Assembly: GCF_013410745.1 (NCBI RefSeq)
Contig: NZ_JACCFY010000001.1
Location: 372,001-436,000, forward strand
Direction of reading: 5' to 3'
Length of the DNA stretch: 64,000 bases
Source: Nesterenkonia xinjiangensis
Lineage (GTDB): Bacteria; Actinomycetota; Actinomycetes; Actinomycetales; Micrococcaceae
The notes under the pieces are model-generated. The model had not been told where the DNA came from. It did no database searches and saw only the letters and a program-made list of their open reading frames with translations. Below are positions 45,617 to 64,000 of this stretch, piece by piece. The position numbers and the translations under genes were made by a program. Positions within the stretch are counted from its first letter, which is position 1, and every line of letters begins with the position of its first letter.

Positions 45617-45620
45617 GGTC

Positions 45621-45649: not shown

Positions 45650-45709
45650 GGGTCGCTCTCCGGCGGTTCCAGGCTATTCTTGACTGACCAGCGATCAAGG
45701 ATGGGCTCA

Positions 45710-48986: not shown

Positions 48987-50156
48987 TCAGGCGGGGTCGG
49001 ACAGGTGCCGGCGGGCGCGCTCGAGCACAGCCTGCGCCGCCTGCTCGGCGCCGTCGGAGAACGGCTCCCGCGGGCCGGCCAGTTCCGCGCCGCGAGCGTC
49101 CATGGTCTCCAGCGCTGCGGTGAGCCGGGCGCGCAGACGGTCGACGTCGTGCGGGCCCTCCAGCTCCTCGCGCAGACCCCAGCCGGCATCGGCGGCGCGC
49201 ACCGCTCGAGTGCGCAGCGCCTGCTGCTGCTCGGGGCGCAGCCGACGCCGCGAGCGACGGGCCGCCCCGCGGAGGGGCTCCTCACCGGCAGGTCCCTCGG
49301 TGAGCCATAGGGCCGGCACCCCGGCGGGCACCCAGGTGTGCAGGGCCCGGAATCCCGGGACTGCCAGCGCCGCCACGGTGCGAGCCACCAGTTCAGGCGT
49401 CAGCCCACCGGCGACCTTCTCGGCTCCTGCGGGCACGCGCCGGGCCACGGCGCTGTCCAGCAGGGCGACAGTCCACTGCTTCTGATGCGCAGCGAACCAC
49501 TCCAGGGCCAGGTCCTCGGCCGCGGCGGCGGTGTCCGGGCTCAGCCCGGCCAGATCCACGACCACCGTGGGCCGTGCGGTGGCGTCTCCGGCGAGGTTCG
49601 CCTCGGCGTTCTGTGCGCTCCCCGCGGCGGCATCCAGCACGGCGGCGTCCAGCACGGGGTCCACCTCGACGCGGCTGTGCGCGGCGGTTCCGGAGGAGCG
49701 TGAGGTGAGGCGGCCGTCCACCAGCTCACCGACCTCGATGGTGAGTTCGGCGGTGCGCGGGGCCGCTCCGCTGCGCTCCTGGGCGTCCATCGCGGAGACG
49801 ACGTCGACCCACGACACGCCGTGGGTGCGACGCAGCCGGTCCAGCAGCCAGGCGGGGAAGTCGCCGTCGACCACGAGAACGTCCGGCTCGAAGCCGCCGA
49901 TGAGCCGGTCCAGGCGAGGAAGGAGGTAGTCCTTCGCCCACGTCTCGGGATCCATGTTCAGCCGGCGCGCCGAGCCGATGCGCTGCAGCGGGAAGGGCGG
50001 ACCCTGCGGCCCGGGCGGCTCGGTGGAGGACAGCGTCGCCATGACCACGTCGGCCTGGCTGTGGAGCTTCTCTCCGATGCGCGTGAGGCGGCGCAGGGTG
50101 CCGGTGACGGCGTCGTCGTCGCTGAGCAGCAGCACGCGGGGACGGGTGTGCGGCAT
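48987..50156 (-). CDS. GT-B-like protein of unknown substrate (putative glycosyltransferase)
   Basis: 389-aa protein that I cannot place in a named family. The N-terminus RPRVLLLSDDDAVTGTLRRLTRIGEKL and FEPDVLVVDGDFPAWLLDRL look like the first Rossmann half of a GT-B glycosyltransferase. Later, VPGFRALHTWVPAGVPALWLTEG resembles a donor-site loop. The C-terminal about 100 residues are Arg/Glu-rich and helical. AAGGA lies 8 nt before the ATG. It lies 44 bp downstream of the nucleotide-sugar dehydrogenase on the same strand and is probably cotranscribed, so it may transfer the uronic acid that enzyme makes. Confidence 0.55.
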   Translation of the reverse strand: MPHTRPRVLLLSDDDAVTGTLRRLTRIGEKLHSQADVVMATLSSTEPPGPQGPPFPLQRIGSARRLNMDPETWAKDYLLPRLDRLIGGFEPDVLVVDGDFPAWLLDRLRRTHGVSWVDVVSAMDAQERSGAAPRTAELTIEVGELVDGRLTSRSSGTAAHSRVEVDPVLDAAVLDAAAGSAQNAEANLAGDATARPTVVVDLAGLSPDTAAAAEDLALEWFAAHQKQWTVALLDSAVARRVPAGAEKVAGGLTPELVARTVAALAVPGFRALHTWVPAGVPALWLTEGPAGEEPLRGAARRSRRRLRPEQQQALRTRAVRAADAGWGLREELEGPHDVDRLRARLTAALETMDARGAELAGPREPFSDGAEQAAQAVLERARRHLSDPA

Positions 50157-50200
50157 GGTTCGTTCCTTCGTCTCGGCGAGATGTCGTCCAGCCCTGGGGC

Positions 50201-51520
50201 TCAGAGTCTCTCGATGCCCTCAGCAGTGGTCGCTCCACGCGTGTCGAAGAGCAACTCCGCAGACGCAGCAATAGCTTCCAAGTCATAGACCGCATGCGGC
50301 TGCAGAACCACCACGATATCCGCCTCCCCCAAAGCCTCATCCAGATCCGGAACCCGCTGCAGCGACCCACCACCCACAAACCAGGTCTCCACATACGGAT
50401 CATGAAAAGACACCAACGCCTTCTTCTCCCGCAGCACCTTCGCCACCGGCACCGCCGGAGACTCCCGCTGATCCGCAATATCCGGCTTATACGTCACCCC
50501 CAACAACAACACCTTCGACCCATTGAGCGGCTTACGCACCTCATTGAGCGCCTCACCGATCCGCGCAGCCACATACGTCGGCATCGAGTTGTTGATCTCC
50601 TGAGCCAACTCCACGAACCGGAACTGATACCCCAGAGTCTTACGCACCTGAAAGCTCAAATAATTCGGATCGATCGGAATGCAATGACCCCCCACGCCAG
50701 GACCAGGAGTGAACTTCTGGAACCCGAACGGCTTCGTCCCAGCCCCCCGGATCACCTCCCAGATATCAATGTCCAGATCATGACAGAACCGCGCCATCTC
50801 ATTGACCAACGCGATGTTCACATGCCGATACGTGTTCTCCAGCAGCTTCGCCGTCTCCGCCTCCTTGGTGCCCGAGACCGGCACCACCTCCTCGACGAAC
50901 CGGCCATAGAACCCCGACGCCACCCGCGTAGCCTCCGCAGAAAGCCCACCCACCAGCTTCGGAGTGTTCGTGATCCCATACCTCGTAGACCCAGGATCCA
51001 CCCGCTCCGGCGAGTAGGCCAACAGAAAGTCCTCACCATGGACCAGCCCTGAAGACTCCAGAATCGGCAGCACCACATCCTCAGTGGTCCCCGGATACGT
51101 CGTCGACTCCAGAATCACCGTGGTCCCCGGCACCAGATGCTCAGCAATCGTGCGCGCAGAAGCCTCCACCGCCCGCAGATCCGGACCACCCTCCTCACTG
51201 AGCGGAGTCGGCACACAGATCACAATCACCGAAGCCCCCGCCAGATCCCCCGGATCCACACTGGCCCTAAACCCCTGGGAGAGCATCACCGCGACATCCT
51301 CATCACTGAGGTCATCCACATGCGAGACACCAGCGTTGAGCTGATCCACCAACGACTCCGAGACATCAAAACCCACCGTGGGAATCCCCACCGCCACAGC
51401 CGCCTGAGCCAACGGAAGACCCACATACCCCTGCCCCACAATCACAGCAGGACGCTCGTGGGCGTCCTCGGCGCCGGTGACTGAGAGGGCGTCGGCAGGG
51501 TGATTCGATGCAGGTGTCAC
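50201..51520 (-). CDS. Nucleotide-sugar 6-dehydrogenase (WecC/TviB/UDP-Glc DH family)
   Basis: 439-aa UDP-sugar dehydrogenase that oxidises C6 of a UDP-hexose or UDP-HexNAc to the uronic acid. Seen: the NAD motif VGQGYVGLPLAQAA, VPTPLSEEGGPDL, ESTTYPGTT, AYSPERVDPG, NTYRHVNIALVNEMA and the catalytic cysteine in PGVGGHCIPIDPNYL. The WecC/TviB/WbpA subgroup fits best, so UDP-GlcNAcA or UDP-ManNAcA is as likely as UDP-GlcA. The GTG at 51520 has AAGGA 6 nt upstream. Third codon positions favour G/T (TTG, TAT, GAT, ATT, CGG), unlike neighbours, suggesting a separate origin. It opens the uronate side of the ATP-grasp locus. Confidence 0.92.
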   Translation of the reverse strand: MTPASNHPADALSVTGAEDAHERPAVIVGQGYVGLPLAQAAVAVGIPTVGFDVSESLVDQLNAGVSHVDDLSDEDVAVMLSQGFRASVDPGDLAGASVIVICVPTPLSEEGGPDLRAVEASARTIAEHLVPGTTVILESTTYPGTTEDVVLPILESSGLVHGEDFLLAYSPERVDPGSTRYGITNTPKLVGGLSAEATRVASGFYGRFVEEVVPVSGTKEAETAKLLENTYRHVNIALVNEMARFCHDLDIDIWEVIRGAGTKPFGFQKFTPGPGVGGHCIPIDPNYLSFQVRKTLGYQFRFVELAQEINNSMPTYVAARIGEALNEVRKPLNGSKVLLLGVTYKPDIADQRESPAVPVAKVLREKKALVSFHDPYVETWFVGGGSLQRVPDLDEALGEADIVVVLQPHAVYDLEAIAASAELLFDTRGATTAEGIERL

Positions 51521-51617
51521 GCAGGTCCTTCGTTCCGAGGGGGTCTCCACCGGGGAGGCGTCCTCCGTCCGGCTGAGCCCACTGTATCGCCCGCAGCTGA
51601 GACTCCTGAGATGCGCC

Positions 51618-52524
51618 ATGCTCGTGATCGCAAGTTGCCTCAGAATGCGCTCCGAGCACGCACGCGAGCCGGCCGAGAATCGTCCGCGAAACGGGGAGGT
51701 CCTGATCGCAACGATCGCGCTCGTCGTCTTCGCGCTGATCAACGCGCACCGCGGCGGAGGCCCAGCCCGGCTGCAGTCCTTCAGGCGTATGCTCATGCCC
51801 CTTGCGATGGCCAGCCTCCTGGTCGACACGTGCTCCCTCACCCCGGGGCACGCTGCAGAACCTCTCTCCGGCGTGCCCTCCTGATGTGGTTCCGTGGGCC
51901 GGAGTCCTCACCATCGTCGTGCTCGCCCCATGGGCCATCATCGGATTCGACAACATTCCCCAGACTGCGGAGAAGCTCCGGCTTTCCCCGGCGAAGGCCT
52001 TCCGACTGATCGTCGGCTCCCTCATCCCAGCGACGGCGGTCTATCGCGCGATGATCGTCACCACCACGGCCGGAGCCCCGTGGCAGGCGGAGCAGGAGCG
52101 GCAGCCGGTGTGGGGCCTGGTTCACCGTGGCCGTCTGACTGATCGCTCCATGGTTCGGCCGCACAGCGCTCACCTGAATGGTCGACATGGCGTCCATCGG
52201 CTTCATGTTCGCCTTCGCGCACGCGTGCCTCTGGGCCAACCGGATGTTCCGCTGGACCGGTCAGCCCGAGTGGGTAGAGCCTGCCGCGTCGACCCCTCTC
52301 AAGCTGCTGGCCGCGGCCGGGCTCCTGGTGGCCCTAGCCTTCACCGTGCCGCTACTCGCGCCCCGGTTCTCCGGCACAGCTGACCGTCCCGCCGTTCGTC
52401 GCGCTCAGCGCGTGGATCCCGCTCGGTATGGTGCTCTTCGCGGGCCAGAGAAACCACAGCCGCACCGTTACCGACGAGGTCGACACTGCGGTGCTGGCGG
52501 CGGCCCGACCGCGCCGGGTCAGGT
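51618..52524 (+). pseudogene. Broken APC-superfamily amino acid permease
   Basis: Three reading frames successively show pieces of one APC-type permease. The first holds helix IATIALVVFALINAHRG near 51700. The next frame holds VPWAGVLTIVVLAPWAIIGFDNIPQTAEKL (from about 51895). A third frame holds MVDMASIGFMFAFAHACLWANRMFRW (from 52178), preceded by in-frame stops at 52136 and 52175. A final shift gives VALSAWIPLGMVLFAGQ and a stop at 52522-52524. With at least three frameshifts it cannot make a transporter. It occupies the gap between the dehydrogenase and the ATP-grasp genes. Confidence 0.75.
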
Positions 52525-54342
52525 GAGCGGGTGCGACGCGGTCACCGATGAGCTGTTCTGCGCGATCCACCGCACGAGGTCCACGAGGCTGCCGCCGATC
52601 ACCTGATGCCCAGCGACGAGTTTCGGCCGGGACACCATCCCCTCGACCAGCGGGCGTGCCCAGGGCCGGCCCGCGGCACGGCGCGGGATCACCACGTCGA
52701 CGGGTGCCCAGCGCAGCTCAGGGACCGACCGCACAGCACGGACGGCCGCCCGTGCTGCTGTCTCGATGACCTCCTCGGGTAGGAGCTCCTGACGCCTGGC
52801 GGCCGTCACCCACAAGACCTCGTCACGGGTGGCGTACAGCCGGATCCGGGCACCGGCCGGACGTGTCTGGACGAGCCACTCCCCCTTCGACTCCTCCAGG
52901 AGCTCCACAGCCTCAGGGAGTCGGAGCCTGCGCTGTCTGGGATCGCCCCACCGTGCCTTGGGCGGAGTGAGCACCAGCGGTGCCGTGCTGTCTGCGAAGA
53001 TCCGCCGGCAGTCCTCGGCATTGGAGACTACGGCGCCGCGGGGGCGCAGGATGAGGGACTCGCCGAGCAGCTGGCGGACCAGCTCATGCCGCCGCAGTAT
53101 CCGGCGGGTGGAGAGCATGTCCTGGGTCGTGGGACCGCTGCGGAGGAACCAGAGCTCGCTCCCGGCTCCATCGCGGGCCTGCTTCACGGCGCCCCACGAA
53201 GTCACTCCCCAGCCGTCAGCGGCCAGGACCGCGCGCATGACGTCTCCGAGCAGCAGGCCGTTCGTCCCATCCGGCCAGTCTTCCGGGACCTCGTCCCTCA
53301 CCGCACAAGGCGCTGCAGGTGCGGGAGGAGCCGCCCGGCCCAACGGGGCGTCCGTCGAGCCCTGCTCGCGACGGATCTCCCAGATCGCCCCTGCCACATC
53401 CTGAGGGCGCCCTTGCACCGGGTGGGTGGCGCCGCCGTAGCCCGCGCTGACGTTGGCCTCCAGGACGCAGGGCGCCCCGGTCCTTTGGTCGATCACGACG
53501 TCCACGCCGCCCCAGTGCAGGCCCGGGATCGCCTTGGCGGCCTCCACAGCGAGCCTCGGAACGCGGGGGTCCACGGTGTCCGACACCTCGTGGGGCTCGC
53601 CGCCGCCGGAGATGCCCCCGACATTGCGCACCAGGACCTCGTGGCCCGGGTTCACCACGGAGGTGAGGTCCAGCCCCTGCGCCGCCAGCACGGTGTCCAC
53701 CACGCTGTCCTTGGGGATCGGGATGCGCTCCAGCATGGGGTTCCGTCGCCGTTCCTCGTTCTTGGCATCGATCAGCGCCTCGAGGGATCTCACCCCATCC
53801 CCGATGACGCGCGGCAGCACCCGGCGGACGACGGCGAAGCACCGCTGGGGAGTCACCAGGCAGCGGTACTCCTCCGCAAACTCGATCTGTTCCTCCACCA
53901 CGACTCCCTGACGGTGCTTCGCTGCGCGGTGGAACGCCCTGACGATGCTCTCCGGGTCGGTGAGACGGACACTCACGCCGCGGCCGGCCGACCCGACACG
54001 GGGCTTCACGACGACGGGAGCTCCGCGGCTCTCTGCCCAGGCCACCGCCTCGTCGGCGTCCATGACCAGGCGTCCTTGGGGCGTGCTGACCCCTGCGGCG
54101 CGGAGGAAGCGCCGTGCCAGCTCCTTGTCGTCCACGATCAGGGCCGCCACCGATGACTCATGGTTGATGGCCCCGTCGATCAGGTAGCGCCGCCCTCGGG
54201 ACTGCAGGACACCCTGGCGAGTGCTGAGCCAGGTGACCTCGCCGCCGTCGCGGGCTCCCGCTGTGGCGGCGAGCTGCCCAGCCACCCTGTTCAGCGTCGG
54301 CGACCAGATCAGCTCCTGGACATCAACGTCTCGCAGATCCAT
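52519..54342 (-). CDS. Two-lobed ATP-grasp amide ligase (ATP-grasp no. 3)
   Basis: 607-aa protein related to the ATP-grasp module of cyanophycin and glutathione synthetases. The N-terminal half is a full ATP-grasp: FLRAAGVSTPQGRLV, VVVKPRVGSAGRGVSV (nucleotide lysine and glycine loop), VIGDGVRSLEALIDAKN, and the metal site VLEANVSAGYGG. The C-terminal half (about 360-607) repeats the fold in degenerate form (HELVRQLLGESLILRPRG, PVDVVIPRR) without a clear glycine loop. There is no Mur-ligase domain, so it is not cyanophycin synthetase. Start at 54342 has AAGGTGGGGG upstream; 54393 is an alternative. Predicted to join an amino acid to a carboxylate via acyl phosphate. Confidence 0.75.
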   Translation of the reverse strand: MDLRDVDVQELIWSPTLNRVAGQLAATAGARDGGEVTWLSTRQGVLQSRGRRYLIDGAINHESSVAALIVDDKELARRFLRAAGVSTPQGRLVMDADEAVAWAESRGAPVVVKPRVGSAGRGVSVRLTDPESIVRAFHRAAKHRQGVVVEEQIEFAEEYRCLVTPQRCFAVVRRVLPRVIGDGVRSLEALIDAKNEERRRNPMLERIPIPKDSVVDTVLAAQGLDLTSVVNPGHEVLVRNVGGISGGGEPHEVSDTVDPRVPRLAVEAAKAIPGLHWGGVDVVIDQRTGAPCVLEANVSAGYGGATHPVQGRPQDVAGAIWEIRREQGSTDAPLGRAAPPAPAAPCAVRDEVPEDWPDGTNGLLLGDVMRAVLAADGWGVTSWGAVKQARDGAGSELWFLRSGPTTQDMLSTRRILRRHELVRQLLGESLILRPRGAVVSNAEDCRRIFADSTAPLVLTPPKARWGDPRQRRLRLPEAVELLEESKGEWLVQTRPAGARIRLYATRDEVLWVTAARRQELLPEEVIETAARAAVRAVRSVPELRWAPVDVVIPRRAAGRPWARPLVEGMVSRPKLVAGHQVIGGSLVDLVRWIAQNSSSVTASHPLT

Positions 54343-54508
54343 GTCCCCCACCTTGTCAACTTCATCTGTGCGTTGCGCCACGTCCTGCCTCATCTTCGGC
54401 CGGCGGCCCCGGGCGTGCCGTCACTGATCCGGTATGTGCCCAGCTGGCTGTCGAGGAATTTCACCGACGGCCCTCGGCGCCAGGCCTCCAGAGTGAGGCC
54501 CAGGCTCG

Positions 54509-55759
54509 TTAGCCGTCCGCCCCGGTGGAGAACCCGGACACACCGGTGGCCGACGCCGGCCGGGAGTCCACACACATGAGGTGCTCACCGGCGAGGGTCC
54601 CGGCGACGGCCAGCTCGTTGAACAGGGCGACGGCTGCCGCAGATCCCTCCAGGTGGCCCCGGGCGATCCCGCCCACCACGTCCTCGGCCCGCGCGTAACC
54701 ACGCAGTCCGGAGCCGGCCGCGGCCCTGGCGAGGTGCTCCAGAAAGTCCTCCATCACGGAGACGCCCTCCCAGCGGACATCGAGGGCGACGGTCGCCTGC
54801 GGCTCTCCGAACGCCTCGCCCGCCCCCTCGGCCACCGTGCGGGCCAAGATCCGACGAGCCAGTTCGAGGCTCCAGGCGGGGTCCTCGGCGGACTGCATAG
54901 ACAGCCACGGTCGCTCAGAGACATCCACGACGACGACGTCCTGGGTCTCCAGAGGGCTCTTCGCCCCTCGGCTGAGGACGACGTCGACGGCGATCACCGC
55001 GAGCCCGGGGAAGACGGATGCGACCTCCTCCGAGTGGGTGACCAGCGACGGGTGGATCGTGGAGCGCACCTCTGCCCCGCCTCCGCCGGTGCCCCAGGCT
55101 CCAGCCGGCGAGTGGAAGGCCGAGACGACCTCACCGGCGATGAGCAGGAAACGGACGAACTCCCCACGGACCTGCTCCTCGATCAGGTACCGGTAGTTCT
55201 TCCGTGTCCTGGTCTGGTCATCCTCCCGCGGAGTATGGATCGCCGTGAAGGCGTAGGAGGCCGTGGTGTAGTCCGGGCGCAGCTGGGGAGCCACGCGCAG
55301 ATCACGGATGCCTTCCAGCAGGTCTTCGGTGCTGGTGATCCCGGTGCGGGTCTCGATGGTGTTGTCGCCCACCATGGGCTTGAGCACCACAGGGAAACCG
55401 CGCCGCTCGGCGAAGGCCAGGGCGGCGCGGGTGCCGCCGCCGATGGTGAACGTGGCACCCTCGGGCACCCGGATGCGATGCTGCTCGAGCATGGCACGAC
55501 GCACCCGCCGGTCCTGGACCAGGGTCGCGGTGGAGAGCTGGGTCTGCTGCGGGACGCCATGGGCGAAGGAGCCGCCGTCGAGGGTGCCGTCCTCATGGGT
55601 CAGCAGCAGAGCCTGCCCCGGGAAGAGCAGGGTCCCACAGCCGGCCTGCAGCGCGGCAGCGTGCACGAGCCAGCCGTCGGTGAGCTCGGGAGGGCAGTCT
55701 GCGGCGAGGGCCGCTGACGTCTCCCCTGCGGTCTGAGGCGAGCGAGGTGAGGTGGACAT
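54509..55759 (-). CDS. Degenerate ATP-grasp protein with acylphosphatase-like tail (ATP-grasp no. 2)
   Basis: 416-aa paralogue of the flanking ATP-grasp genes (RRAMLEQHRIRVPEGATF and FAERRGFPVVLKP align with them). Key parts look altered: after VVLKP the glycine-rich loop is GDNTIETRTGI, and the E-x-N metal motif is replaced by VVVDVSERPWLS. The last about 90 residues (VRWEGVSVMEDFLEHLARAAA, LRGYARAEDVVGGIARGHLEG) resemble an acylphosphatase fold lacking the catalytic Arg. It may be a regulatory or carrier subunit of its neighbours. The ATG overlaps the fusion gene's stop (TGATG), so stoichiometric coupled expression is likely. Confidence 0.65.
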   Translation of the reverse strand: MSTSPRSPQTAGETSAALAADCPPELTDGWLVHAAALQAGCGTLLFPGQALLLTHEDGTLDGGSFAHGVPQQTQLSTATLVQDRRVRRAMLEQHRIRVPEGATFTIGGGTRAALAFAERRGFPVVLKPMVGDNTIETRTGITSTEDLLEGIRDLRVAPQLRPDYTTASYAFTAIHTPREDDQTRTRKNYRYLIEEQVRGEFVRFLLIAGEVVSAFHSPAGAWGTGGGGAEVRSTIHPSLVTHSEEVASVFPGLAVIAVDVVLSRGAKSPLETQDVVVVDVSERPWLSMQSAEDPAWSLELARRILARTVAEGAGEAFGEPQATVALDVRWEGVSVMEDFLEHLARAAAGSGLRGYARAEDVVGGIARGHLEGSAAAVALFNELAVAGTLAGEHLMCVDSRPASATGVSGFSTGADG

Positions 55760-58700
55760 CAGTTCCCCTTCCTGACCAGACGGGCTGCGCGCCGTGTCAC
55801 CGCCGAGGTGATGCGGGCGGGGTCGCGCAGCACACGGGCTGCGCGGACGGGATCGCTCAGTGCCCGTCTCGCCCGTGCCGACGCGCTTCGGGAGGCGTCC
55901 TGCCCGGCGACGGGATTCTTCCGGATCTCGAAGCCCTCGACCCCCGGGTCCTGCACGTGCACGGTGGTCACCGAGGTCGGACGGGCGCGCCGGGGGCCCA
56001 GCACCGCGGCGGTGGCCAGGGCGGCGACCGCGTCTGTGGGCCCCGACACCACGGCCTCCACGGACCGGTCGGACTTGCGGCGGATCCATCCGGTGCAGCC
56101 GAACTCGGCGGCACGACGGCTGAACCAGCCCCGGTACCCCACGCCGACGACCCTCCCCCGAGCACGGATGCGCACGCTGAGCCTCTCGGCCCGCTCCGGG
56201 AGGACGTGCAGGCCGAACTCTCCGGCGGCCCGACGCAGGAACTGGCTGGAGACCCGACGCGGGGTGCCGAACATGGGGTACTCGGCCACCGGGAGCGCCG
56301 CCACGGCGTTGAGCTCGCAGATCGCACCCTCCTGCTCATCGAGCGGGCGGGTATGGTCCTCCAGCAGGAAGTCCACTCCGCAGTAGGCCAGCCCGGGGAC
56401 GGCCTTCACCGCCTCCACCGAGGCCTTCAGGATGCTGGGGTGGATCTCGTCGAGTATCTCGATGGAGTCTCCGCCCTGGGTGAGGTTGTTCCCGCTGTTG
56501 AGCAGGACCCGCTCCCCGGCGGGGATCACGCTGTCCCCCTGATACCCGGCCTTCGCGCTCTCATGCCGAGCGGTGGCGTTCCACTTCAGCTTCAGCGTGG
56601 CCAGGTGGGAGTTCTGCTTGCGGGCGGCGTTCTTCGCCAGGATCAGCTCGATCAGCGTGGAGGTCCCGTCTCCCACCACGGAGGCGGGCACTCGCTCGAC
56701 GGCGGCCACGACCTCATCGCCGAGCACCATGATCCGATAGTCGCGCCCATGGATGTGCTTCTCCACGATGAAGTCCCCCGAGCCCATGACGCTCTGCCTC
56801 ATACGGTCCAGGGCGGAGCCCAGCTCCTCGGCGTTGACGATGTTGGCGGTGACGCCCACACCCATGGATCCAGCGGCAGGTTTGAGGACCACCGGGAAGC
56901 CGATGCGCTCCGCGTACTGCAGGGCGCTGCCGGCGTCGCCGTTGCTGAAGGTGCGTCCGAGCGGAACCGGGCAGCCGTTGCGGTGCAGCAGGATCCGGGT
57001 GGACTCCTTGTGCCGGACGATGGAGGCCGCCACCACGCTGGAGAGCGGCCAGCGGGCGGTGCGGAACGACAGCGGCGACCGTTCACCGTCATCGGCCTGG
57101 AATGTCGATTTGTTGAACCGGCGGGTGTTCAGCCCGTAGGCCAGAGCTTCCCGCTCCACGATGTGCCCGTGCACCGCGTAGGACCCCATGGGGCGGATGT
57201 AGTCGACGTCGTCGTAGGTCAGCGCAGGGCGGCCCTCCAGCGTCGGGGCCGGCGGGGTCGGGTAGGTGGCGTAGTGGACGACGACGCCCACGAGATTCTC
57301 GTAGGCGAGATCGACGCCCAGTCCCGGGACCGAAGGGACGACGACCTGGTGGAGCACATCATCGGCGTCGTACTCCGGCTCGTACTCGGTCTCGTCATCC
57401 TCCTCGACCTCGTCGTCGACGTCGTGGCCGCCCTCGCGCGGTCCGGTGTCGTCATCCTCATCGTCGGTCCGCGCCGCCCGGCGTGCAGACTCGAGCTCCG
57501 CATCGGCGTCCGTCTCGACGTCGGCCGCGACGCCCACCCCAATGGCGGTCTCCGACTCGGCGGCGGTCTCCGTCTCGGCGGCAGCCTCACTCTCCGCGGA
57601 GTCTCCATCAGCACCTTCGGCGAGCGCGTCGTCCTCGATCGGCTCCTCGGCCCCCTCCCAGCCGAAGTCCGCCTCCTGCTCCTCCGTCCGGCGGCTCGCG
57701 GTCTCGGCAGCCGCCTGCGCCTCTTCCGCCTGGGCGTCGGCGGCGGCCTCTCGGGCTGCGGCCAGGGCCGCCTGCTCCGGGTCCAGGACTCGGGTGGTGA
57801 TCTCCACATGGTTCTCCACCACGGCGGCCAGCCGGGCGGAATCGATGCGCGGCAGGGCCAGCGCCAGGTGCCGCAGCGCGGAGGTGGTCAGGCGGCTGGC
57901 GCCGACCATGCGGGTCAGGGCCACGGTGGCGTCGGGGTTCGCACGCAGCACAGCCTCGGCCAGATCGATGCTCTCCAACAGGCCACCGGCCTGGGCGGGA
58001 CGGACGTTGACCGCCCGCAGGGGACGCCCTCCGTGCCCGGCGACGACGTCGGCGGCGTCCCACATCGAGCCGTCGCCCATGATGCGCAGGTCCACCTGGC
58101 GGTCACGCCTCAGCCAGGTCTGACGGTCGGCACGGCGCTGCAGGGACCGCAGCTGATCACCGTCCCCGGAGGGGACCGGCTGGCCCAGCACCAGCTGGGA
58201 GGGCAGGCGACCGCGGCTCATCTCACGGGCCAGTCGGCCGACCAGCCGGTGGGCCTCCTGGGAGCTGAGCGTACGGGCCACGGTGACCCAGAGCGGTCGG
58301 TCAGCAGCCTCCTCCCCGGCGGCCCGGTTGGCGGCCGTCACGTCCGTCAGGAAGGCCAGAGCCTCGTCGACGTCGGCGGGCACGGTCACCCGGCTGTGGT
58401 CGTAGCGCTCACGCTGGCCGTCCAGGCGGTCGAGCACCCGCTGGTGGTCGGCGCGCGGGGACACTGTGGTGGGAGCCAGGGGGGCGGCATCCCGACGACG
58501 TCCCAGCAGGTCGACCAGTGGGAGGTCGTGGGCTCGGGACGCCAGGTCGAGCAGAGCGACCTCGAGTCCGAGCAGCGTCCCGCGGAACGGCCGGGTGTGA
58601 CCGTCCCGGCCCTGAGCGGAGGCCAGGGCACGCAGCCGGGCCATGGATTGGCGGATGGCGTGCAGAGTATCGGCAGGCGTCGCCACCGCCAGGGTGTGCC

Positions 58701-58971
58701 CTTGCAGGGATTCCACCGCCGTCTGGGCGAACGCCCAGGAGTCGCCGGCGTCGTCACCGGTGCGGCCGCCACGGGGCTGTCCCTCTCCCTGCCCACGGAT
58801 CTCGGAGCCGTCTGCGGTGACGGCGCCGAGGGCGAAGATGATGTTGCTGGGCCGCACGGAGGACCGACGACGCGGCACCCGATAGGACAGCGCGCGGGCG
58901 AAGGTGATGCGGATGGTGCCCTCAGGGGCCGTCGGGGATCCCGCGACCTCAGTGGCGTCAGAGTGGGTCAT
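55759..58971 (-). CDS. Three-part fusion: enolase-superfamily domain, ATP-grasp ligase, acylphosphatase domain
   Basis: 1070-aa multidomain protein. Residues about 20-390 match the enolase superfamily (dipeptide-epimerase/OSB-synthase type): RGTLLGLEVALLDLASRAHDLPLVDLLG, QPVPSGDGDQLRSL, VNVRPAQAGGLLESIDLAE, LALALPRIDS. Its acid-base Lys and most metal ligands are replaced, so it is probably inactive. Residues 400-538 are an Ala/Glu then strongly acidic linker. Residues about 600-925 are a complete ATP-grasp (PVVLKPAAGSMGVGV, VVGDGTSTLIELILAKN, metal motif ICELNAVAA). Residues about 930-1018 are acylphosphatase-like (RGRVVGVGYRGWFSRRA, GFEIRKN), with the catalytic Arg but Arg in place of Asn. 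No good Shine-Dalgarno motif; a TAGCAT -10 lies in the 5' gap. Confidence 0.8.
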   Translation of the reverse strand: MTHSDATEVAGSPTAPEGTIRITFARALSYRVPRRRSSVRPSNIIFALGAVTADGSEIRGQGEGQPRGGRTGDDAGDSWAFAQTAVESLQGHTLAVATPADTLHAIRQSMARLRALASAQGRDGHTRPFRGTLLGLEVALLDLASRAHDLPLVDLLGRRRDAAPLAPTTVSPRADHQRVLDRLDGQRERYDHSRVTVPADVDEALAFLTDVTAANRAAGEEAADRPLWVTVARTLSSQEAHRLVGRLAREMSRGRLPSQLVLGQPVPSGDGDQLRSLQRRADRQTWLRRDRQVDLRIMGDGSMWDAADVVAGHGGRPLRAVNVRPAQAGGLLESIDLAEAVLRANPDATVALTRMVGASRLTTSALRHLALALPRIDSARLAAVVENHVEITTRVLDPEQAALAAAREAAADAQAEEAQAAAETASRRTEEQEADFGWEGAEEPIEDDALAEGADGDSAESEAAAETETAAESETAIGVGVAADVETDADAELESARRAARTDDEDDDTGPREGGHDVDDEVEEDDETEYEPEYDADDVLHQVVVPSVPGLGVDLAYENLVGVVVHYATYPTPPAPTLEGRPALTYDDVDYIRPMGSYAVHGHIVEREALAYGLNTRRFNKSTFQADDGERSPLSFRTARWPLSSVVAASIVRHKESTRILLHRNGCPVPLGRTFSNGDAGSALQYAERIGFPVVLKPAAGSMGVGVTANIVNAEELGSALDRMRQSVMGSGDFIVEKHIHGRDYRIMVLGDEVVAAVERVPASVVGDGTSTLIELILAKNAARKQNSHLATLKLKWNATARHESAKAGYQGDSVIPAGERVLLNSGNNLTQGGDSIEILDEIHPSILKASVEAVKAVPGLAYCGVDFLLEDHTRPLDEQEGAICELNAVAALPVAEYPMFGTPRRVSSQFLRRAAGEFGLHVLPERAERLSVRIRARGRVVGVGYRGWFSRRAAEFGCTGWIRRKSDRSVEAVVSGPTDAVAALATAAVLGPRRARPTSVTTVHVQDPGVEGFEIRKNPVAGQDASRSASARARRALSDPVRAARVLRDPARITSAVTRRAARLVRKGN

Positions 58972-59124
58972 CGTCTCAGCGGCGCTCTCGTCGATCAGTC
59001 TCGTGGGGTGCTCCGGCCAGTTGGGCCGGGCAGTCGATCGGGCAGGGACCAGACCGCTGCGATGCTATCACCGCAGCCATCCCGGATCGGGGCACAGAGG
59101 ACGCGATTCAGCAGCAGCTCAGCC

Positions 59125-59541: not shown

Positions 59542-59550
59542 GATGCCTCC

Positions 59551-61248
59551 TCAGCCGCGCCGCAGCGGGGTGGGATCGGTCTCAGTCAGGCGGTTCTCAT
59601 GCCGACGCAGCCACAGCGCCAGCAGGGCGAGTCCGCGGATCAGGTGCTGGGCCCGGGTACGGGTGAGCTGACGGCGCCACAGCTCGGCGTCGCCGTCGCG
59701 CAGCTTCTCCCCGAGCAGGGCCGCCGCCGGGGAGGCCATGACAAGCTCCCGATACCAGGCGGCCGCGTCCAGCGAGGCGCCGCGGCGCACATGCTGACGG
59801 CCCGTGGTGAGGTCCGCGGCGGTGGGGATGTCGTCGAACTCAGGACGCACCCGGCGCAGCAGGTCCGGGTACCAGCGGCCGTCCCGTTTCGCCGCGGGCT
59901 CCACACGCAGAGCCTGCGAGACCACCTGGTGGGACATGATCGGCACCGCCGTCGGCCGGCTTCCGCCCAGCACGGCGGCTGGGGCCATGCTGATGCCGGG
60001 CAGCGTGCGGGTCAGGTAGGCCGTGAGCGTCGCCCCCTGCGGGTGCTCGGCCAAGGGTTCGGCGATCGTCATGAAGTCATCGCGCCCTGCGGCGGTCAAC
60101 GCGCCCGCCACTCCCGGGGCGAGGAGCTCCTCGGCCACCTGCAGGTATCGGGCCAGGCGGCCGAACCGGGAGGTCATCAGCTCCTGCGACCCGCCTCCCT
60201 CCTGGAGCACGGCAGGATCGTCGGGGAATCCGCCGCCCAGGAAGACCCCTCCGCCGAGACCGTCGAGCACGGTCCCCTGCTGACGGGCCAGCTCACGTGC
60301 CACCGGCATGAGCCACACATGGAAGGAGGCCTGATGCCCCGTCACCTCAGCGTAGTCCGCGAAGTCCTGCGCGAAGCCGTCGTGCCGGCCGGGCACGATC
60401 CGCTGCCGGATTCCCAGACCGGAGGCGATCCGGGCCGCGGTGAGCTCCTCCAGAGTCGTGCCGGTGTCGGAGCTGGTGGTCCAGGCGGTCAGCCCGCCGG
60501 GCTGGCCCAACTCGTCTGCGAGGCCGGTCAGCAGCCGGGAGTCACGGCCTCCGGAGAGCATCGGCTGCAGCGGGCCGCTCTCGCCGAGCGCGGCGACCTG
60601 ACCACGCATCGCCTCCAGGACTTCGCTGGTGAGGCTCTCCGGGGTCAGGCCCGGTTCCGGGGTGATCTGCTCCCAGGGCCAGGTCACACGGCTGCGGCGC
60701 GGAGCGCCGCCGCGCTCCAGACGCACCTGCTCCATGGGGCCCAGACGGCGGATCCCCTCCACGGTGGTGCGTCCGGCCAGGGGCGCGCCGATGCCGATGA
60801 TCTGTGCCCAGCCGGTCCAGTCGGGGGCGAGCGGCCCCGGCGCGGTGTCCACCAGCAGATTCAGCTGGGTGGCGAAGTAGACGACGTCCTCATGCTGCTC
60901 CACGTAGACGGGCTGGACCCCGGAGATGCCGGTGTGCAGGACCGTCGCGCCGTCAGGCTCCAGGACCACTCCCGCGACGTCGGCGTCACGGGCGGCGTGC
61001 TCCCACCGCACCGGCGCGGTCCCGAGCCCCGCGGGCTCCGGAGTGGCGGTGGAGAACATCCAGGCCTCGCCACAGTCCTCGGGGCGGGCCCGCAGCGCGG
61101 TGCTGCCGATGAGCAGCGCCGCAGGACGGTCGACGATCACCGCGGTGCCACTCTCCTGTGGAGTGAGTCCGGCCGCGCCGGCCATGCGCCGCACACGCGC
61201 AGGATCGCCGGCTCCGAGCATGCCGCAGACTCGGGTCGTCTCGGTCAC
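59551..61248 (-). CDS. Asparagine-synthetase-like amide-bond synthase
   Basis: 565-aa protein of the asparagine synthetase class B superfamily. The N-terminal Ntn-hydrolase-like domain has CGMLGAG, and GISGVQPVYVEQHEDVVYFATQLNLLV aligns with the usual LGIRPLYY region. The synthetase domain has the PP-loop PMLSGGRDSRLL near residues 229-240. The glutaminase Cys is at position 8, not 2, so it cannot act as an N-terminal nucleophile unless processed. Synthetase-only relatives include beta-lactam synthetases and lasso-peptide cyclases, which adenylate a carboxylate for intramolecular or intermolecular amide formation. The GTG at 61248 has AAGGAG at the ideal 6 nt; an ATG at 61254 abuts that motif. 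Confidence 0.78.
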   Translation of the reverse strand: MTETTRVCGMLGAGDPARVRRMAGAAGLTPQESGTAVIVDRPAALLIGSTALRARPEDCGEAWMFSTATPEPAGLGTAPVRWEHAARDADVAGVVLEPDGATVLHTGISGVQPVYVEQHEDVVYFATQLNLLVDTAPGPLAPDWTGWAQIIGIGAPLAGRTTVEGIRRLGPMEQVRLERGGAPRRSRVTWPWEQITPEPGLTPESLTSEVLEAMRGQVAALGESGPLQPMLSGGRDSRLLTGLADELGQPGGLTAWTTSSDTGTTLEELTAARIASGLGIRQRIVPGRHDGFAQDFADYAEVTGHQASFHVWLMPVARELARQQGTVLDGLGGGVFLGGGFPDDPAVLQEGGGSQELMTSRFGRLARYLQVAEELLAPGVAGALTAAGRDDFMTIAEPLAEHPQGATLTAYLTRTLPGISMAPAAVLGGSRPTAVPIMSHQVVSQALRVEPAAKRDGRWYPDLLRRVRPEFDDIPTAADLTTGRQHVRRGASLDAAAWYRELVMASPAAALLGEKLRDGDAELWRRQLTRTRAQHLIRGLALLALWLRRHENRLTETDPTPLRRG

Positions 61249-61406
61249 AGACATCTCCTTGCGCGCCCGGTGCCCGGACGCCGACTCTTCGGGGACCTCG
61301 GATGCACGAGGATGGCAGAGGCCCGGGGCGTCGGCGAAGCACCGCGCCTCCGGCTTGGTACGATCCTAACGCTCGTGAACCCCTGCACCTGGAGGCGACC
61401 ACACCG

Positions 61407-62645
61407 ATGGATTCCGCGGCCGACCACGGACGGCACCCCGCCCCAGACGGTGCGGCACAGCCCGTGCCCTCGCCGACGCCTCCCCCGCCCTCCTTCCCCC
61501 GGAAGGTGGTGCGGAAGTCCCGGCAGATCGCCCGCAAGGCGGACCACAAGCGCCGCAACTGGCGCAAGGAGGTGCGCAAATCACGTCGCTGGGCCGAGGA
61601 CTACCGGAAGTTCCTCCGCAAGGAGTTCCGGTGGGAGACCTCACCGGATATGCGTCGCCCTCAGTGGTGGGCCCAGGGTTTCCTCTCCCGTTCCGTGACC
61701 CTCTACGACCTCCCCAATGAGGACCAGCAGGACTACGTCACCGATGTCCAGCGATACACGCGCACCAAGCGGATGGTGCACCCCCACCTGCAGGAGATCC
61801 TTGACAACAAGTTCTCCTTCTTCCTGCTGATGAATCAGCTCGGGCTCGATTCCGACGTCGTGCCGCTGCTGGGCCTCTACTCCCGAGGAGAGGTCCACGT
61901 CTTCCCGAACGACGACCAGGTCCCCCTCCGGGAGTTCCTCGAGACCCGCCTGGAGGTCGGCCAGCGAGTCTTCGTCAAGCCCCTGCGGGGTGCGGAGGGG
62001 CGGTTCGTCGTCTCGGTCCGCCGCACCGCGGACGGCTGGAGGATGAACGGCCAGGATCGCAGCTTCGAGGACGTCGCCTCCTGGATCGAGGCTCGCCCCA
62101 AGCCGATGATCTTCGAAGCCGCCGTCCCGCAGGCCGAGTCCCAGGCCCAGCTCAATCCGCATTCCACCAACACACTGCGGGTGCTGACCATGCCGGACCT
62201 CACCCAGGGCAAAGAGCCGTTCATCGCCGTCGCGGTCCAGCGCATCGGCACCTCCCGCTCGGCCCATGTGGACAACTGGACCCAGGGCGGGCTCAGCGCG
62301 AAGATCGACATCGCCACGGGCACCCTCTCCCGCGCCGGGCAGCTTCCCGACGACCACACCCCGGTGTGGCACACCGTGCATCCGGACTCCGGGGCGCAGA
62401 TCGAAGGCGCGACTGTCCCCTTTTGGGAGGAGACCAAGGCGCTGGTGCTCGAGGGCGCGAAGCGGCTGAACTTCATGGAGTACATCGGCTGGGACATCAT
62501 CGTCAGCCCCACGGGCCCGGTCATCCTCGAGGCCAACGTCAACTCCGGGATGAACGTGCTGCAGGTCCACGGCCCGCTGTTGAAGGACGAGCGGGTGCGG
62601 CGCTACTTCGAGAAGCGCGGAGTGGTTCCCAAGAAGCGCAACTGA
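61407..62645 (+). CDS. Sugar-transfer-associated ATP-grasp protein (TupA-like)
   Basis: 412-aa protein resembling the ATPgrasp_ST / TupA-like group found in polysaccharide loci. A very basic N-terminal segment (residues 30-80, many KR/RK pairs) precedes the domain. ATP-grasp features: QRVFVKPLRGAEGRFVVSV (nucleotide Lys), MNGQDRSFEDVASWI, NTLRVLTMPD, DNWTQGGLSAKID and the metal site VILEANVNSGMNVLQVHGPLL. TupA is linked to teichuronopeptide synthesis in alkaliphilic Bacillus. The ATG at 61407 has GGAGG 11 nt upstream; a TACGAT -10-like hexamer is at 61359-61364. It is divergent from the amide synthase and convergent with the next gene. Confidence 0.82.
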   Translation: MDSAADHGRHPAPDGAAQPVPSPTPPPPSFPRKVVRKSRQIARKADHKRRNWRKEVRKSRRWAEDYRKFLRKEFRWETSPDMRRPQWWAQGFLSRSVTLYDLPNEDQQDYVTDVQRYTRTKRMVHPHLQEILDNKFSFFLLMNQLGLDSDVVPLLGLYSRGEVHVFPNDDQVPLREFLETRLEVGQRVFVKPLRGAEGRFVVSVRRTADGWRMNGQDRSFEDVASWIEARPKPMIFEAAVPQAESQAQLNPHSTNTLRVLTMPDLTQGKEPFIAVAVQRIGTSRSAHVDNWTQGGLSAKIDIATGTLSRAGQLPDDHTPVWHTVHPDSGAQIEGATVPFWEETKALVLEGAKRLNFMEYIGWDIIVSPTGPVILEANVNSGMNVLQVHGPLLKDERVRRYFEKRGVVPKKRN

Positions 62646-62678
62646 ACCTCCCCCGCTGGCGACTCAGAGGGGCGGACC

Positions 62679-63821
62679 TCAGAGTGTGGTGGCCAGGTGG
62701 ATCCTGCGCAGCCGGTCCAGGGCCGTGGGCAGCTCGGCGGCACGGATCCGGGTGCTCGCCCCATAGCCCATGAGCAGCTCCGCGCTCCAACCGGTGCCCG
62801 GCTCCTCCGGACGGTGCAGCACGACGACTCCGTCCAGCCCGTCGGGCACCGGCTGCTCCTCCTGCTGCTGGTCGGTGATGAGCAGCAGCGGCCCGGCCGC
62901 ACCGACGGCCCGAGCGGCGCCCTCCCCTGCGGCACGGAGCAGCGCCTGATGCAGCCGCTCGGCCGTGGGACCGGCGGCCTCAGCCCGGCCTATGCGCACC
63001 ACTGACCATCCGGACTCCGAGGCCCAGCCCTGCAGCGCCTCGCCGGCGGTGACGCCGTCGGCGACGATGACCCCGGCAGAGTCCCCGCCGATGACGGTGA
63101 CCGTCGGAGTGAAACCCTCACCGAGGTCCAGCTGCCGAGCGAGGCCGTCCTCGAGGGCTCCCCGCCACCAGCCGCGCAGGGCCCTCTCCTCCTGAGAAGC
63201 CGACCCACCAGCCTGCGGCCCCTCGGGCAGCGCCTGGCGGGCCAGCTCTGCGGCGGTGGACATGATCTTCTCCGGCGCCCGAGAGAAGGCTCCCACCCGG
63301 GCGATGTCCGCCAGGACCTGCTCAGGGCTCTCGGGGGCCAACACCAGCGAGGCGCCGTACTGCCGGCGCGCCCACTCCAGGTGGTCGACGGCGGCCGGGA
63401 GCCAGTTCTCCCCCTGCAGCGCGGCCCAGTCGGCCTCACCGAGCAGGTGTTCCACGGTCCAGTCCACAGTACGCACGGGCGCGCTGGTCGGCACATCGGT
63501 GACGACCACCATGCGGAAGGCATAGGTGGCCTCACGGATGATCTCCACGGCCCGAGTCAGCGCGGCGTGCAGCGAGGCGCTGCGCCGTGTCATCACCGCC
63601 ATCACGACCGGCAGCTCGTAGAAGGTCTGGGGGCGCAGGGTGCCCAGCGGAGCGAAGTCCATCGTGCTCGCCACGGTCAGCACCTTCTCACCGTGACGGC
63701 CGCGGGCCCAGGTCTCCAGGCTCGTGGACCAGGAGTCCGCGGAGGCGGCGCCGGCCGGCGCCTGACCGACGCGCGTGTCACTGGTCGGCGTCGAGCTGCT
63801 CGACGTGGAGGAGGTCTGCAT
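62679..63821 (-). CDS. Unrecognised protein in the ATP-grasp locus
   Basis: 380-aa protein with no family I can name. A Ser/Thr-rich start of about 25 residues is followed by ETWARGRHGEKVLTVASTMDFAPLGTLRPQTFYELPVVMAVMTRRSASLH, an alpha/beta region (TVTVIGGDSAGVIVADGVTAGEALQ) and a final strand-helix unit (GPLLLITDQQQEE, LDGVVVLHRPEEPG). The C-terminal half may be a Rossmann-like or GT-B-like module. AGGAG lies 8 nt before the ATG, which overlaps the upstream stop (TGATG). It is convergent with the TupA-like gene. Confidence 0.6.
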   Translation of the reverse strand: MQTSSTSSSSTPTSDTRVGQAPAGAASADSWSTSLETWARGRHGEKVLTVASTMDFAPLGTLRPQTFYELPVVMAVMTRRSASLHAALTRAVEIIREATYAFRMVVVTDVPTSAPVRTVDWTVEHLLGEADWAALQGENWLPAAVDHLEWARRQYGASLVLAPESPEQVLADIARVGAFSRAPEKIMSTAAELARQALPEGPQAGGSASQEERALRGWWRGALEDGLARQLDLGEGFTPTVTVIGGDSAGVIVADGVTAGEALQGWASESGWSVVRIGRAEAAGPTAERLHQALLRAAGEGAARAVGAAGPLLLITDQQQEEQPVPDGLDGVVVLHRPEEPGTGWSAELLMGYGASTRIRAAELPTALDRLRRIHLATTL

Positions 63822-64000
63822 CAGCGGGACTCCTGTCCTTCCCTGGGTGCATGGTGTGCGAGCGGGGCCTCCGCGGCGGTCCCGGGGGCCCTCGGCAGCT
63901 GGGAGGGCGTCATCACGCGACGGAAGCAGCTGGCCACCCGAGGCTCGGGGGCGACGTCGTCGCCGGCGCGGCCGCGCACCCAGGTGCCCGGGACATCGGC
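63821..64000 (-). CDS. C-terminal end of an unrecognised protein, partial
   Basis: The last 59 codons of a gene that enters from beyond the window. The stop (63821-63823) overlaps the next gene's ATG as TGATG. The visible part (starting DVPGTWVRGRAGDD, then RVASCFRRVMTPSQLP) has W-x-RGR-x-GD, faintly like the W-ARGRHG segment of the following protein, so the two could be related. Function unknown. Confidence 0.5.
   Translation of the reverse strand, partial: ADVPGTWVRGRAGDDVAPEPRVASCFRRVMTPSQLPRAPGTAAEAPLAHHAPREGQESR

What the first reader, a model, noticed from the sequence alone, without database searches (positions are those of the whole stretch)
48987..64000. Candidate undescribed pathway for an amino-acid- or peptide-decorated acidic glycopolymer
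Seen in one locus: a nucleotide-sugar 6-dehydrogenase, a GT-B-like protein, two ATP-grasp proteins plus an ATP-grasp fusion, an asparagine-synthetase-like amide synthase, a TupA-like sugar-transfer-associated ATP-grasp protein and several unknown proteins. Established: ATP-grasp and AsnB-like enzymes make amide bonds by activating carboxylates, TupA-like proteins occur in teichuronopeptide synthesis in alkaliphiles, and 6-dehydrogenases supply uronic acids with free carboxylates. Inference: uronate carboxyls are amidated with amino acids or short peptides, giving a wall or capsule polymer. I know of no described actinobacterial pathway with this exact gene set.
Basis: partly seen in the sequence, partly recalled or inferred. 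Interest (0 to 1): 0.9.

Follow-up and report, generated by a model that had tools for sequence, protein, structure and literature searches.

The report
Likely peptide-decorated wall polymer gene cluster
A bacterium related to Nesterenkonia carries a large, duplicated gene cluster, conserved in some relatives, that most likely builds an acidic cell-surface sugar polymer bearing amide-linked amino acids or peptides, a kind of polymer known from alkali-loving bacilli.

Summary
Window 48987-63821 of a Nesterenkonia-like genome encodes a UDP-sugar dehydrogenase, a GT-B-like protein, an AsnB-like ligase, a PF14397 sugar-transfer ATP-grasp and three more ATP-grasp proteins. One of these fuses an enolase fold, a cyanophycin-synthetase-type ATP-grasp and an acylphosphatase. 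The set recurs 37 kb downstream in the same order, with four large double glycosyltransferases and more ATP-grasp genes between. It also recurs in other Nesterenkonia, Ruania and Phytoactinopolyspora. In 30 genomes of the genus the AsnB-like and PF14397 genes occur together in 13, neither in 16, and PF14397 alone in one incomplete genome. Some relatives' loci add an Asp/cysteate-type racemase, a teichoic-acid-type ABC exporter, an LCP transferase, UppP, or capsule-type PGA_cap domains fused to ligases. The host has a UDP-GlcNAc 2-epimerase and an exporter at another locus. Best reading: a uronate-containing (perhaps ManNAcA) surface polymer with amide-linked acidic amino acids or peptides, related in kind to teichuronopeptide. 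No chemistry is shown. No enolase domain examined keeps both catalytic lysines, so epimerisation is not supported. Substrates, polymer and linkage are inferred.

The parts
48987..50156 (-). A: GT-B-fold protein, probable glycosyltransferase, diverged from its paralogue A2 at ext 86111-87310 (27% identity over 301 aa)
   Evidence: No Pfam/NCBIfam hit; AF2 model pLDDT 56.6 matches GT-B enzymes; an A2-like domain forms the C-terminus of J-like proteins in 4 Jiangellaceae-type loci; identity
50201..51520 (-). B: UDP-sugar 6-dehydrogenase; nearest named equivalogs are UDP-ManNAc dehydrogenases, below their cut-offs
   Evidence: TIGR03026 412 bits, NF040825 259 (cut-off 750), PRK11064 236 (cut-off 459), TuaD 127; 1259 bp 99.5% identical to the second copy
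52519..54342 (-). C: ATP-grasp ligase with a degenerate second half
   Evidence: Pfam ATP-grasp families; closest NCBIfam cyanophycin synthetase 1.2e-55, below its cut-off; second half by inspection only
54509..55759 (-). D: ATP-grasp plus acylphosphatase-fold partner of E, overlapping its gene by one base
   Evidence: No Pfam hit; hhalign 99.9% to E; next to an E gene in most mapped loci
55759..58971 (-). E: enolase-like + cyanophycin-synthetase-like ATP-grasp + acylphosphatase fusion; window copy has lost two enolase metal ligands and the acylphosphatase Asn
   Evidence: this family; model of the relative P0005
59125..59541 (-). F: small protein of unknown function between G and E
   Evidence: No Pfam hit; 34% over 64 aa to F2; F2-like short ORFs beside G in several other loci
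59551..61254 (-). G: AsnB-like ligase, PP-loop SGG[RW]DS kept, glutaminase half degenerate
   Evidence: PF00733 2.6e-7; alignment of 20 sequences, two of them fragments; in 13 of 30 genomes of the genus
61302..62645 (+). H: sugar-transfer-associated ATP-grasp (PF14397); start 61407 favoured by my gene caller
   Evidence: PF14397 5.5e-35; 14 of 30 genomes of the genus; gene
62679..63821 (-). I: protein of unknown function, paralogue I2 downstream
   Evidence: No hit; 36% to I2, 38% over 351 aa to a G138 ORF
63821..64000 (-). J: 3' part of a GT-B-like glycosyltransferase gene that runs from ext 65428
   Evidence: PF13524 below cut-off; J-like ORFs beside G and H in other loci

Best explanation
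This is one half of a large, duplicated biosynthetic system for an acidic cell-surface glycopolymer whose uronic acid carboxyls, and probably an attached oligo- or poly-(acidic amino acid) chain, are joined by amide-forming ligases. Proposed steps: (1) UDP-GlcNAc 2-epimerase (other locus) and dehydrogenase B make UDP-ManNAcA [inferred from families]. (2) GT-B and double GT proteins build the glycan, presumably on a lipid carrier [inferred]. (3) H activates the uronate C6 carboxyl with ATP and joins it to an amine, as the TupA-like domain of Campylobacter Cj1438 does to GlcA [inferred by analogy]. (4) E, D, C and the further ATP-grasp enzymes ligate amino acids, acidic ones most likely (cyanophycin-synthetase-type domain; Asp/cysteate-type racemase in some relatives); the AsnB-like G makes another amide by adenylation [inferred]. 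(5) A TagGH-type ABC exporter moves the chain out, and an LCP transferase may anchor it to the wall [genes seen in some relatives' loci]. Shown here: gene content, duplication, co-occurrence, order across families, catalytic residues of the E ligase. Everything chemical is inferred.
For: Duplicate cluster in the same order. Of 30 genomes of the genus: 13 have both AsnB-like and PF14397 genes, 1 PF14397 only, 16 neither (Fisher 1.2e-7, not corrected for relatedness). Order G-J-H-racemase-E-D in 7 of 7 mapped Ruania and Jiangellaceae-type loci. E ligase: ATP-grasp Lys, Glu and Asn kept in 31 of 31 sequences, 30 distinct. Of 11 functional CphA1 positions, six (R309, R323, K220, K261, D431, E450) kept in 30 of 30 (positions from PMC9427784, passages). 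Best Foldseek matches are cyanophycin synthetases. Of 21 genomes with fetched regions: both exporter genes in 10 and the membrane gene alone in 1; racemase in 10; LCP in 4; UppP in 3. PGA_cap fused to enolase and ATP-grasp (PF09587 8.9e-48, one protein); BLAST-similar ORFs in 10 of 21. UDP-GlcNAc 2-epimerase, exporter pair and a PF14305 protein in this genome. Precedent for uronate amidation: PMC11800379 (passages).
Against: No polymer composition or enzyme assay. In the host the exporter and 2-epimerase lie at 3.55 Mb (about 3.1 Mb away along the contig, about 0.45 Mb if it is circular), no racemase is in the locus, and LCP was not sought outside the fetched locus. Of the 11 CphA1 positions, E215, H267, G456 and R458 are not kept and N394 is N in 12 and S in 18 of 30, so the substrate need not be aspartate. 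No E sequence keeps both enolase lysines, and only 10 of 31 keep three acidic metal positions. In 11 of 21 genomes no racemase, and in 10 no exporter gene, was found in the fetched regions. No repeat-unit polymerase was identified. The host's only PGA_cap match is weak and far away, at 751310. The racemase passes the cut-off of a model named cysteate racemase.
Confidence: 0.6

Rival explanations
1. A secreted small-molecule peptide (natural product or siderophore-like) assembled by ATP-grasp ligases and cyclised by the AsnB-like enzyme, with glycosylation as tailoring.
For: Best NCBIfam hit of G is a macrolactam cyclase (40 bits, cut-off 300); linked ATP-grasp ligases are said to make peptide metabolites as well as wall polymers (PMC4431377, one passage); an MFS gene of family fam5 in 8 genomes' maps; patchy distribution.
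Against: TagH-like exporter, UppP, LCP and PGA_cap context in some relatives; UDP-sugar dehydrogenase and many GTs; 2-epimerase in the genome.
Confidence: 0.17
2. A modified poly-gamma-glutamate or polyaspartate capsule in which the glycan genes serve only as primer or anchor.
For: PGA_cap domains fused to the ligases in relatives; cyanophycin-synthetase-like ATP-grasp.
Against: No Mur-type ligase domain among the Pfam matches of E, E2, C, C2, D or D2; the host itself has only one weak PGA_cap hit, far away; four large double GTs in the locus.
Confidence: 0.12
3. An intracellular compatible solute or storage dipeptide, like N-acetylglutaminylglutamine or cyanophycin.
For: NCBIfam similarity of C and E2 to NAGGN synthetase and cyanophycin synthetase, and of G to NAGGN amidotransferase, all below cut-off; halotolerant host group (recalled).
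Against: No GNAT or Mur domain among the Pfam matches of the ligases; exporter and glycan genes.
Confidence: 0.06
4. Modification of the peptidoglycan cross-bridge by acidic amino acids.
For: D-Asp ligases for cross-bridges are ATP-grasp enzymes (recalled, no call).
Against: Same cluster in groups with different peptidoglycan types (recalled); dehydrogenase, GTs and exporter are not needed for it.
Confidence: 0.05

Closest known systems
Teichuronopeptide of alkaliphilic Bacillus halodurans (TupA)
   Same: Acidic wall polymer joining uronate and acidic amino acids; ATP-grasp enzyme (recalled; Aono 1990 seen only as a reference in PMC2824669); one carrier here is named an alkaliphile, Phytoactinopolyspora alkaliphila
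   Different: Only tupA is tied to it (recalled); window H is PF14397, not PF14305; here a dozen ATP-grasp genes, an AsnB-like ligase and an enolase fusion
Campylobacter jejuni HS:2 capsule amidation (Cj1438 C-terminal TupA-like ATP-grasp)
   Same: ATP-grasp domain reported to amidate a uronic acid C6 carboxyl on a growing capsule chain (PMC11800379, passages)
   Different: There the amine is serinol-P or ethanolamine-P and one ATP-grasp acts; no sequence comparison with H was made here
Cyanophycin synthetase CphA1/CphA2 G domain
   Same: E's ATP-grasp domain is nearest by sequence and fold; phosphate, Mg and two Arg sites kept
   Different: No Mur ligase match in the same protein; the Arg that binds aspartate's alpha-carboxyl is not kept
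Dipeptide epimerase / muconate cycloisomerase fold
   Different: No member of 31 keeps both catalytic lysines; three acidic metal positions in 10 of 31
Micrococcus luteus teichuronic acid
   Same: Same bacterial family (recalled for Micrococcus; Nesterenkonia); ManNAcA-Glc wall polymer (PMC3005890, start of abstract in listing); ManNAcA supply predicted here
   Different: No amino acid decoration in the part of the abstract seen; Micrococcus genes were not compared here
Poly-gamma-glutamate capsule protein CapA (PGA_cap)
   Same: PGA_cap domain fused to enolase and ATP-grasp at relatives' loci
   Different: Not in the host's locus; no CapB/CapC among the proteins scanned, and the genome was not searched for them

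Membership tests
Teichuronopeptide pathway | polymer of polyglucuronate and polyglutamate in the wall | not testable with these tools
   needs wall chemistry
Teichuronopeptide pathway | TupA gene (PF14305) in the cluster | tested here: not met
   window H is PF14397; a PF14305 gene is at G000:C1:3.53 Mb (L120:1521-2984, 48.5 bits, cut-off 25); a strong one (119.6 bits) sits in the G165 locus
Sugar-transfer-associated ATP-grasp (PF14397) | score above curated cut-off | tested here: met
   121.4 bits against 31.4
Cyanophycin synthetase | ATP-grasp G domain with Lys220/Lys261/Asp431/Glu450/Arg309/Arg323 | tested here: met
   30 of 30 sequences
Cyanophycin synthetase | MurE-like ligase domain in the same protein | tested here: not met
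   no Mur hit in E or E2
Cyanophycin synthetase | Arg458 binding Asp alpha-carboxyl | tested here: not met
   0 of 30 Arg; loop alignment could be shifted
Cyanophycin synthetase | Asn394 binding Asp beta-carboxyl | tested here: inconclusive
   Asn in 12, Ser in 18 of 30
Dipeptide epimerase (enolase superfamily) | fold | tested here: met
Dipeptide epimerase (enolase superfamily) | catalytic Lys on strand 2 (second Lys of K-x-K) and on strand 6 | tested here: not met
   strand-2 Lys in 1 of 31 (E2 of this genome), strand-6 Lys in 2 of 31 (P0012, G246), both in none; pairing read
Acylphosphatase | catalytic Arg and Asn | tested here: met
   Arg 28 of 31, Asn 22 of 31, both 21 of 31 in the E family; window copy has lost Asn
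Glutamine-dependent asparagine synthetase | PP-loop SGGxDS | tested here: met
   present in 19 of 20 sequences; the other is a fragment without that region
Glutamine-dependent asparagine synthetase | N-terminal catalytic Cys and glutamine site | tested here: not met
   Cys-Gly only in some sequences, absent in others; no glutaminase signature recognised by inspection
NAGGN biosynthesis | GNAT domain fused to ATP-grasp; NCBIfam cut-off | tested here: not met
   no GNAT hit; E2 143 bits against 569
Poly-gamma-glutamate capsule (CapA) | PGA_cap protein in the locus | tested here: inconclusive
   in relatives' loci, not in the host's

The most novel reading that the evidence does not exclude
A new class of wall-polymer machinery: about a dozen ATP-grasp ligases, arranged as two diverged clusters, plus an AsnB-like ligase, that build a defined, template-free peptide containing D- and L-acidic residues on the carboxyl of a ManNAcA-containing teichuronic acid; the enolase-fold and acylphosphatase domains act as substrate-binding and acyl-phosphate proof-reading modules rather than as an epimerase, and the two copies make two different decorations.
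Probability: 0.2. Interest if true: 0.9.

Novelty: new variant of a known kind. Interest (0 to 1): 0.72.

Why it matters
Teichuronopeptide and similar acidic polymers are thought to help alkaliphiles keep protons at the cell surface (recalled), yet to my knowledge only tupA has been tied to making one. A gene set conserved across three families would make the genetics testable, would show a new use of cyanophycin-synthetase-type ligases beside sugar polymers, and could offer enzymes for making amide-linked polyanionic glycopolymers.

Tried and rejected
Not supported: the enolase domain as an ordinary dipeptide epimerase (no sequence of 31 keeps both lysines). E2 of this genome keeps the strand-2 Lys and acidic metal positions, so some other chemistry there is open. 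Rejected: H as TupA proper (PF14305); it is PF14397. Rejected: PanD at ext 101682 as a dedicated second aspartate decarboxylase; it is the only PanD found in the genome. Set aside as housekeeping flank: SMC, IleRS, FolC and NDK near relatives' loci. Not resolved: F and I. Sequence searches of A2 and H against solved structures gave nothing at E 0.1. Paper searches with no paper: ATP-grasp+acylphosphatase+enolase+peptide, polyaspart+cell wall+ATP-grasp (78), ATP-grasp+actinobacteria+polysaccharide+asparagine synthase+gene cluster (79), 'sugar-transfer associated ATP-grasp' (86). Searches listed papers; by title none describes such an actinobacterial cluster, but most were not opened. Iyer et al. 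2009, the amidoligase survey, is not held, so a mention of this neighbourhood there cannot be excluded. Structural search of the A model was by Foldseek against the PDB only.

Rows left out of counts: the '21 genomes' are those whose fetched regions hold a member of the cluster; fetched regions of G199 and G001 (ATP-grasp-only matches) were dropped, and L043 was dropped as the same contig as G526. One search left out P0001, identical to the window's E. An earlier count said 0 of 11 for genus g82; one search shows 0 of 12.
Full report
Setting. The window is G000:C1:372001-436000 of a 3.57 Mb single-contig genome. A named relative, Nesterenkonia sp. PF2B19, encodes E at 81% identity in its best segment, which places the genome in or near Nesterenkonia (Micrococcaceae). 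I write 'ext' for window numbering continued past 64000, using stretches fetched. Gene calls past the tool's ORF list come from my own simple codon-based script and are approximate at starts.

What is in the window. Reading from 48987: A, a GT-B-type protein without a Pfam or NCBIfam hit; B, a UDP-sugar dehydrogenase, nearest among named equivalogs to UDP-ManNAc dehydrogenases but below their cut-offs; a stretch 51521-52518 in which I saw no clear gene; C, an ATP-grasp protein; D, no Pfam hit; E, 1070 aa; F, 138 aa, no hit; G, AsnB-like; H, PF14397; I, no hit. D aligns by profile to the ATP-grasp plus acylphosphatase half of E (99.9%), so it is a diverged ATP-grasp protein. A's model is of low confidence (pLDDT 56.6, 3 sequences); its Foldseek matches are GT-B enzymes, with TM-scores near 0.4.

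The system is duplicated and larger. At ext 86111-101679 the genes A2, B2, C2, D2, E2, F2, G2, H2, I2, J2 follow in the same order. Protein identities between the copies are 27-65% in the aligned parts (F only over 64 aa), except the dehydrogenase, which is 100% over 418 aa and 99.5% over 1259 bp of DNA: an old duplication with one recently copied or converted gene. Between the copies are four proteins of 901-974 aa, in two tandem pairs, each with a GT-B-like and a GT2 match, an 820-aa ATP-grasp with an acylphosphatase match below cut-off, and two further ATP-grasp proteins. I count 12 ATP-grasp genes in ext 52519-105796 (C, D, E, H, L, O1, O2, C2, D2, E2, H2 and a 195-aa one). D and D2 are counted by the profile match alone, and O2 and the 195-aa protein have only matches below Pfam's cut-offs.

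Co-occurrence. In 30 held genomes of the genus, the PF14397 protein is found in 14 (E 1e-15) and the AsnB-like protein in 13 (E 1e-10). All 13 are among the 14, and the odd one out is an 82% complete assembly in 500 contigs. In one of the 13, G299 (62% complete), the genes are in pieces with stops. Fisher's exact test gives 1.2e-7, ignoring shared ancestry. With a profile of E and E2, 29 of 295 genomes of the family match at 1e-20; 11 reach the acylphosphatase end and 18 match the ATP-grasp part only. At 1e-60 with a broader profile, 8 of 394 genomes of the class match, and 6 of 22 of one other family: 5 of 5 of genus g107, 1 of 1 of g65, 0 of 12 of g82, and 0 of 4 of the rest. One g107 genome has a contig of the same length, 230301, as the named Phytoactinopolyspora alkaliphila contig, so this family is taken to be Jiangellaceae.

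Order and neighbours elsewhere. In Ruania rhizosphaerae and six Jiangellaceae-type genomes the order is G, (F), J, H, racemase, E, D in 7 of 7 mapped loci (F was not called in one). In Nesterenkonia loci the same genes lie together in partly different order. The racemase is of the Asp/Glu type: PF01177 3.5e-40, with TIGR00035 and the cysteate racemase equivalog both above cut-off in 3 of 3 proteins tested. It is in the fetched regions of 10 of 21 genomes and not in the host's. A TagGH-like ABC exporter pair (closest TagH-type model 226 bits, cut-off 538) is in 10 of 21, and one further region holds only the membrane gene, at its edge. An LCP glycopolymer transferase is in 4 of 21 and UppP in 3 of 21, all Jiangellaceae-type. 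Regions differ in length and some cut the locus, so a miss is not proof of absence. A 1204-aa protein of P. alkaliphila directly after D joins an enolase-like domain, a PGA_cap capsule domain (8.9e-48) and an ATP-grasp match below cut-off. BLAST finds PGA_cap-like ORFs in the fetched regions of 10 of 21 genomes, several also matching ATP-grasp proteins, some of the matches weak. PGA_cap itself is common in the genus (23 of 30 genomes, mostly outside these loci), so only the fusions and in-locus copies are evidence.

The host's other locus. At 3.53-3.56 Mb the host has a UDP-GlcNAc 2-epimerase (PF02350 3.9e-116), a PF14305 TupA-like protein, an ATP-grasp protein and the exporter pair (53% and 69% identical to those beside the cluster in G165) next to SMC, NDK, FolC and IleRS (the last three by similarity of neighbourhood). 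This is where G165 and others carry parts of the system. With dehydrogenase B this points to UDP-ManNAcA, the uronate of Micrococcus luteus teichuronic acid (PMC3005890, start of abstract in the listing).

The three-domain enzyme. An AlphaFold2 model of a Nesterenkonia suensis member (P0005; pLDDT 80.8, pTM 0.75) matches cyanophycin synthetases first, and dipeptide epimerases and muconate cycloisomerases for the N-terminal domain. Over 31 sequences (30 distinct) the ATP-grasp Lys, Glu and Asn are invariant; the acylphosphatase Arg is kept in 28 and Asn in 22. The enolase metal positions are D in 17, E in 19 and D in 16, and all three are acidic in 10. The strand-6 Lys is Arg in 28 and Lys in 2; the strand-2 catalytic Lys is present only in E2 of this genome; no sequence has both. 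The window copy has lost the strand-3 and strand-4 metal ligands and the acylphosphatase Asn, while E2 keeps acidic ligands and both acylphosphatase residues. So the activity conserved throughout is the ligase. Against the aspartate-bound cyanophycin synthetase (positions from PMC9427784, passages seen), R309, R323, K220, K261, D431 and E450 are kept in 30 of 30; N394 is N in 12 and S in 18; E215, H267, G456 and R458 are not kept. The two Arg are, as I recall, widespread in RimK-type ligases, so they do not fix the substrate.

Mechanism. PMC11800379 (passages) states that the TupA-like ATP-grasp domain of Cj1438 forms an amide on the C6 carboxyl of glucuronic acid during capsule synthesis. PMC4431377 (one passage) states that linked ATP-grasp ligases often make successive ligations, naming teichuronopeptides among the products. 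On this basis H is the likely link between uronate and amino acid, and E, D, C and the others extend or cap the chain. The AsnB-like G keeps the ATP-binding loop but not a recognisable glutaminase site, so it probably joins a carboxylate to an amine rather than using glutamine. These are inferences.

Limits. The protein database search returned 14 matches at 1e-10, the window's own protein included, among 8000 scored candidates; remote relatives may be missed. Region counts depend on contig breaks. I compiled no growth-pH data, so the link to alkaline life is a suggestion from organism names.

Noticed in passing
window 39366-46738: Sugar-use island: GH127 beta-L-arabinofuranosidase (PF07944 1.6e-77), a sugar-binding protein (PF13416), and LacI- and DeoR-type regulators; two ORFs between look like ABC permeases by inspection only.
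   Followed up: partly
window 51521-52518: About 1 kb between B and C with no clear gene, possibly the remains of one; only looked at.
   Followed up: no
window 50200-51458 and ext 87319-88577: 1259 bp at 99.5% identity between the two dehydrogenase copies, with lower GC and GC3 than neighbours, while neighbouring paralogues are 27-65% identical in protein: a sign of gene conversion or recent copying.
   Followed up: partly
ext 101682-102515 (L009:1682-2515): The only aspartate 1-decarboxylase found in the genome (PanD, 277 aa, with a long extra tail) sits directly beside J2.
   Followed up: partly
ext 102667-104067 (L009:2667-4067): Protein with a Lit (lipoprotein intramolecular transacylase) domain beside the second copy.
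   Followed up: no
ext 69249-82333: Four 901-974 aa proteins in two tandem pairs, the other three 45-53% identical to the first, each with a GT-B-like and a GT2 match.
   Followed up: partly
L043:13903-17517: Enolase-like + PGA_cap + ATP-grasp fusion in Phytoactinopolyspora alkaliphila.
   Followed up: partly
G000:C1:3530001-3569370 (L120, L121): Second glycan locus of the host: UDP-GlcNAc 2-epimerase, PF14305 protein, two acyltransferase-SGNH proteins, ATP-grasp protein and ABC-2 exporter pair.
   Followed up: partly
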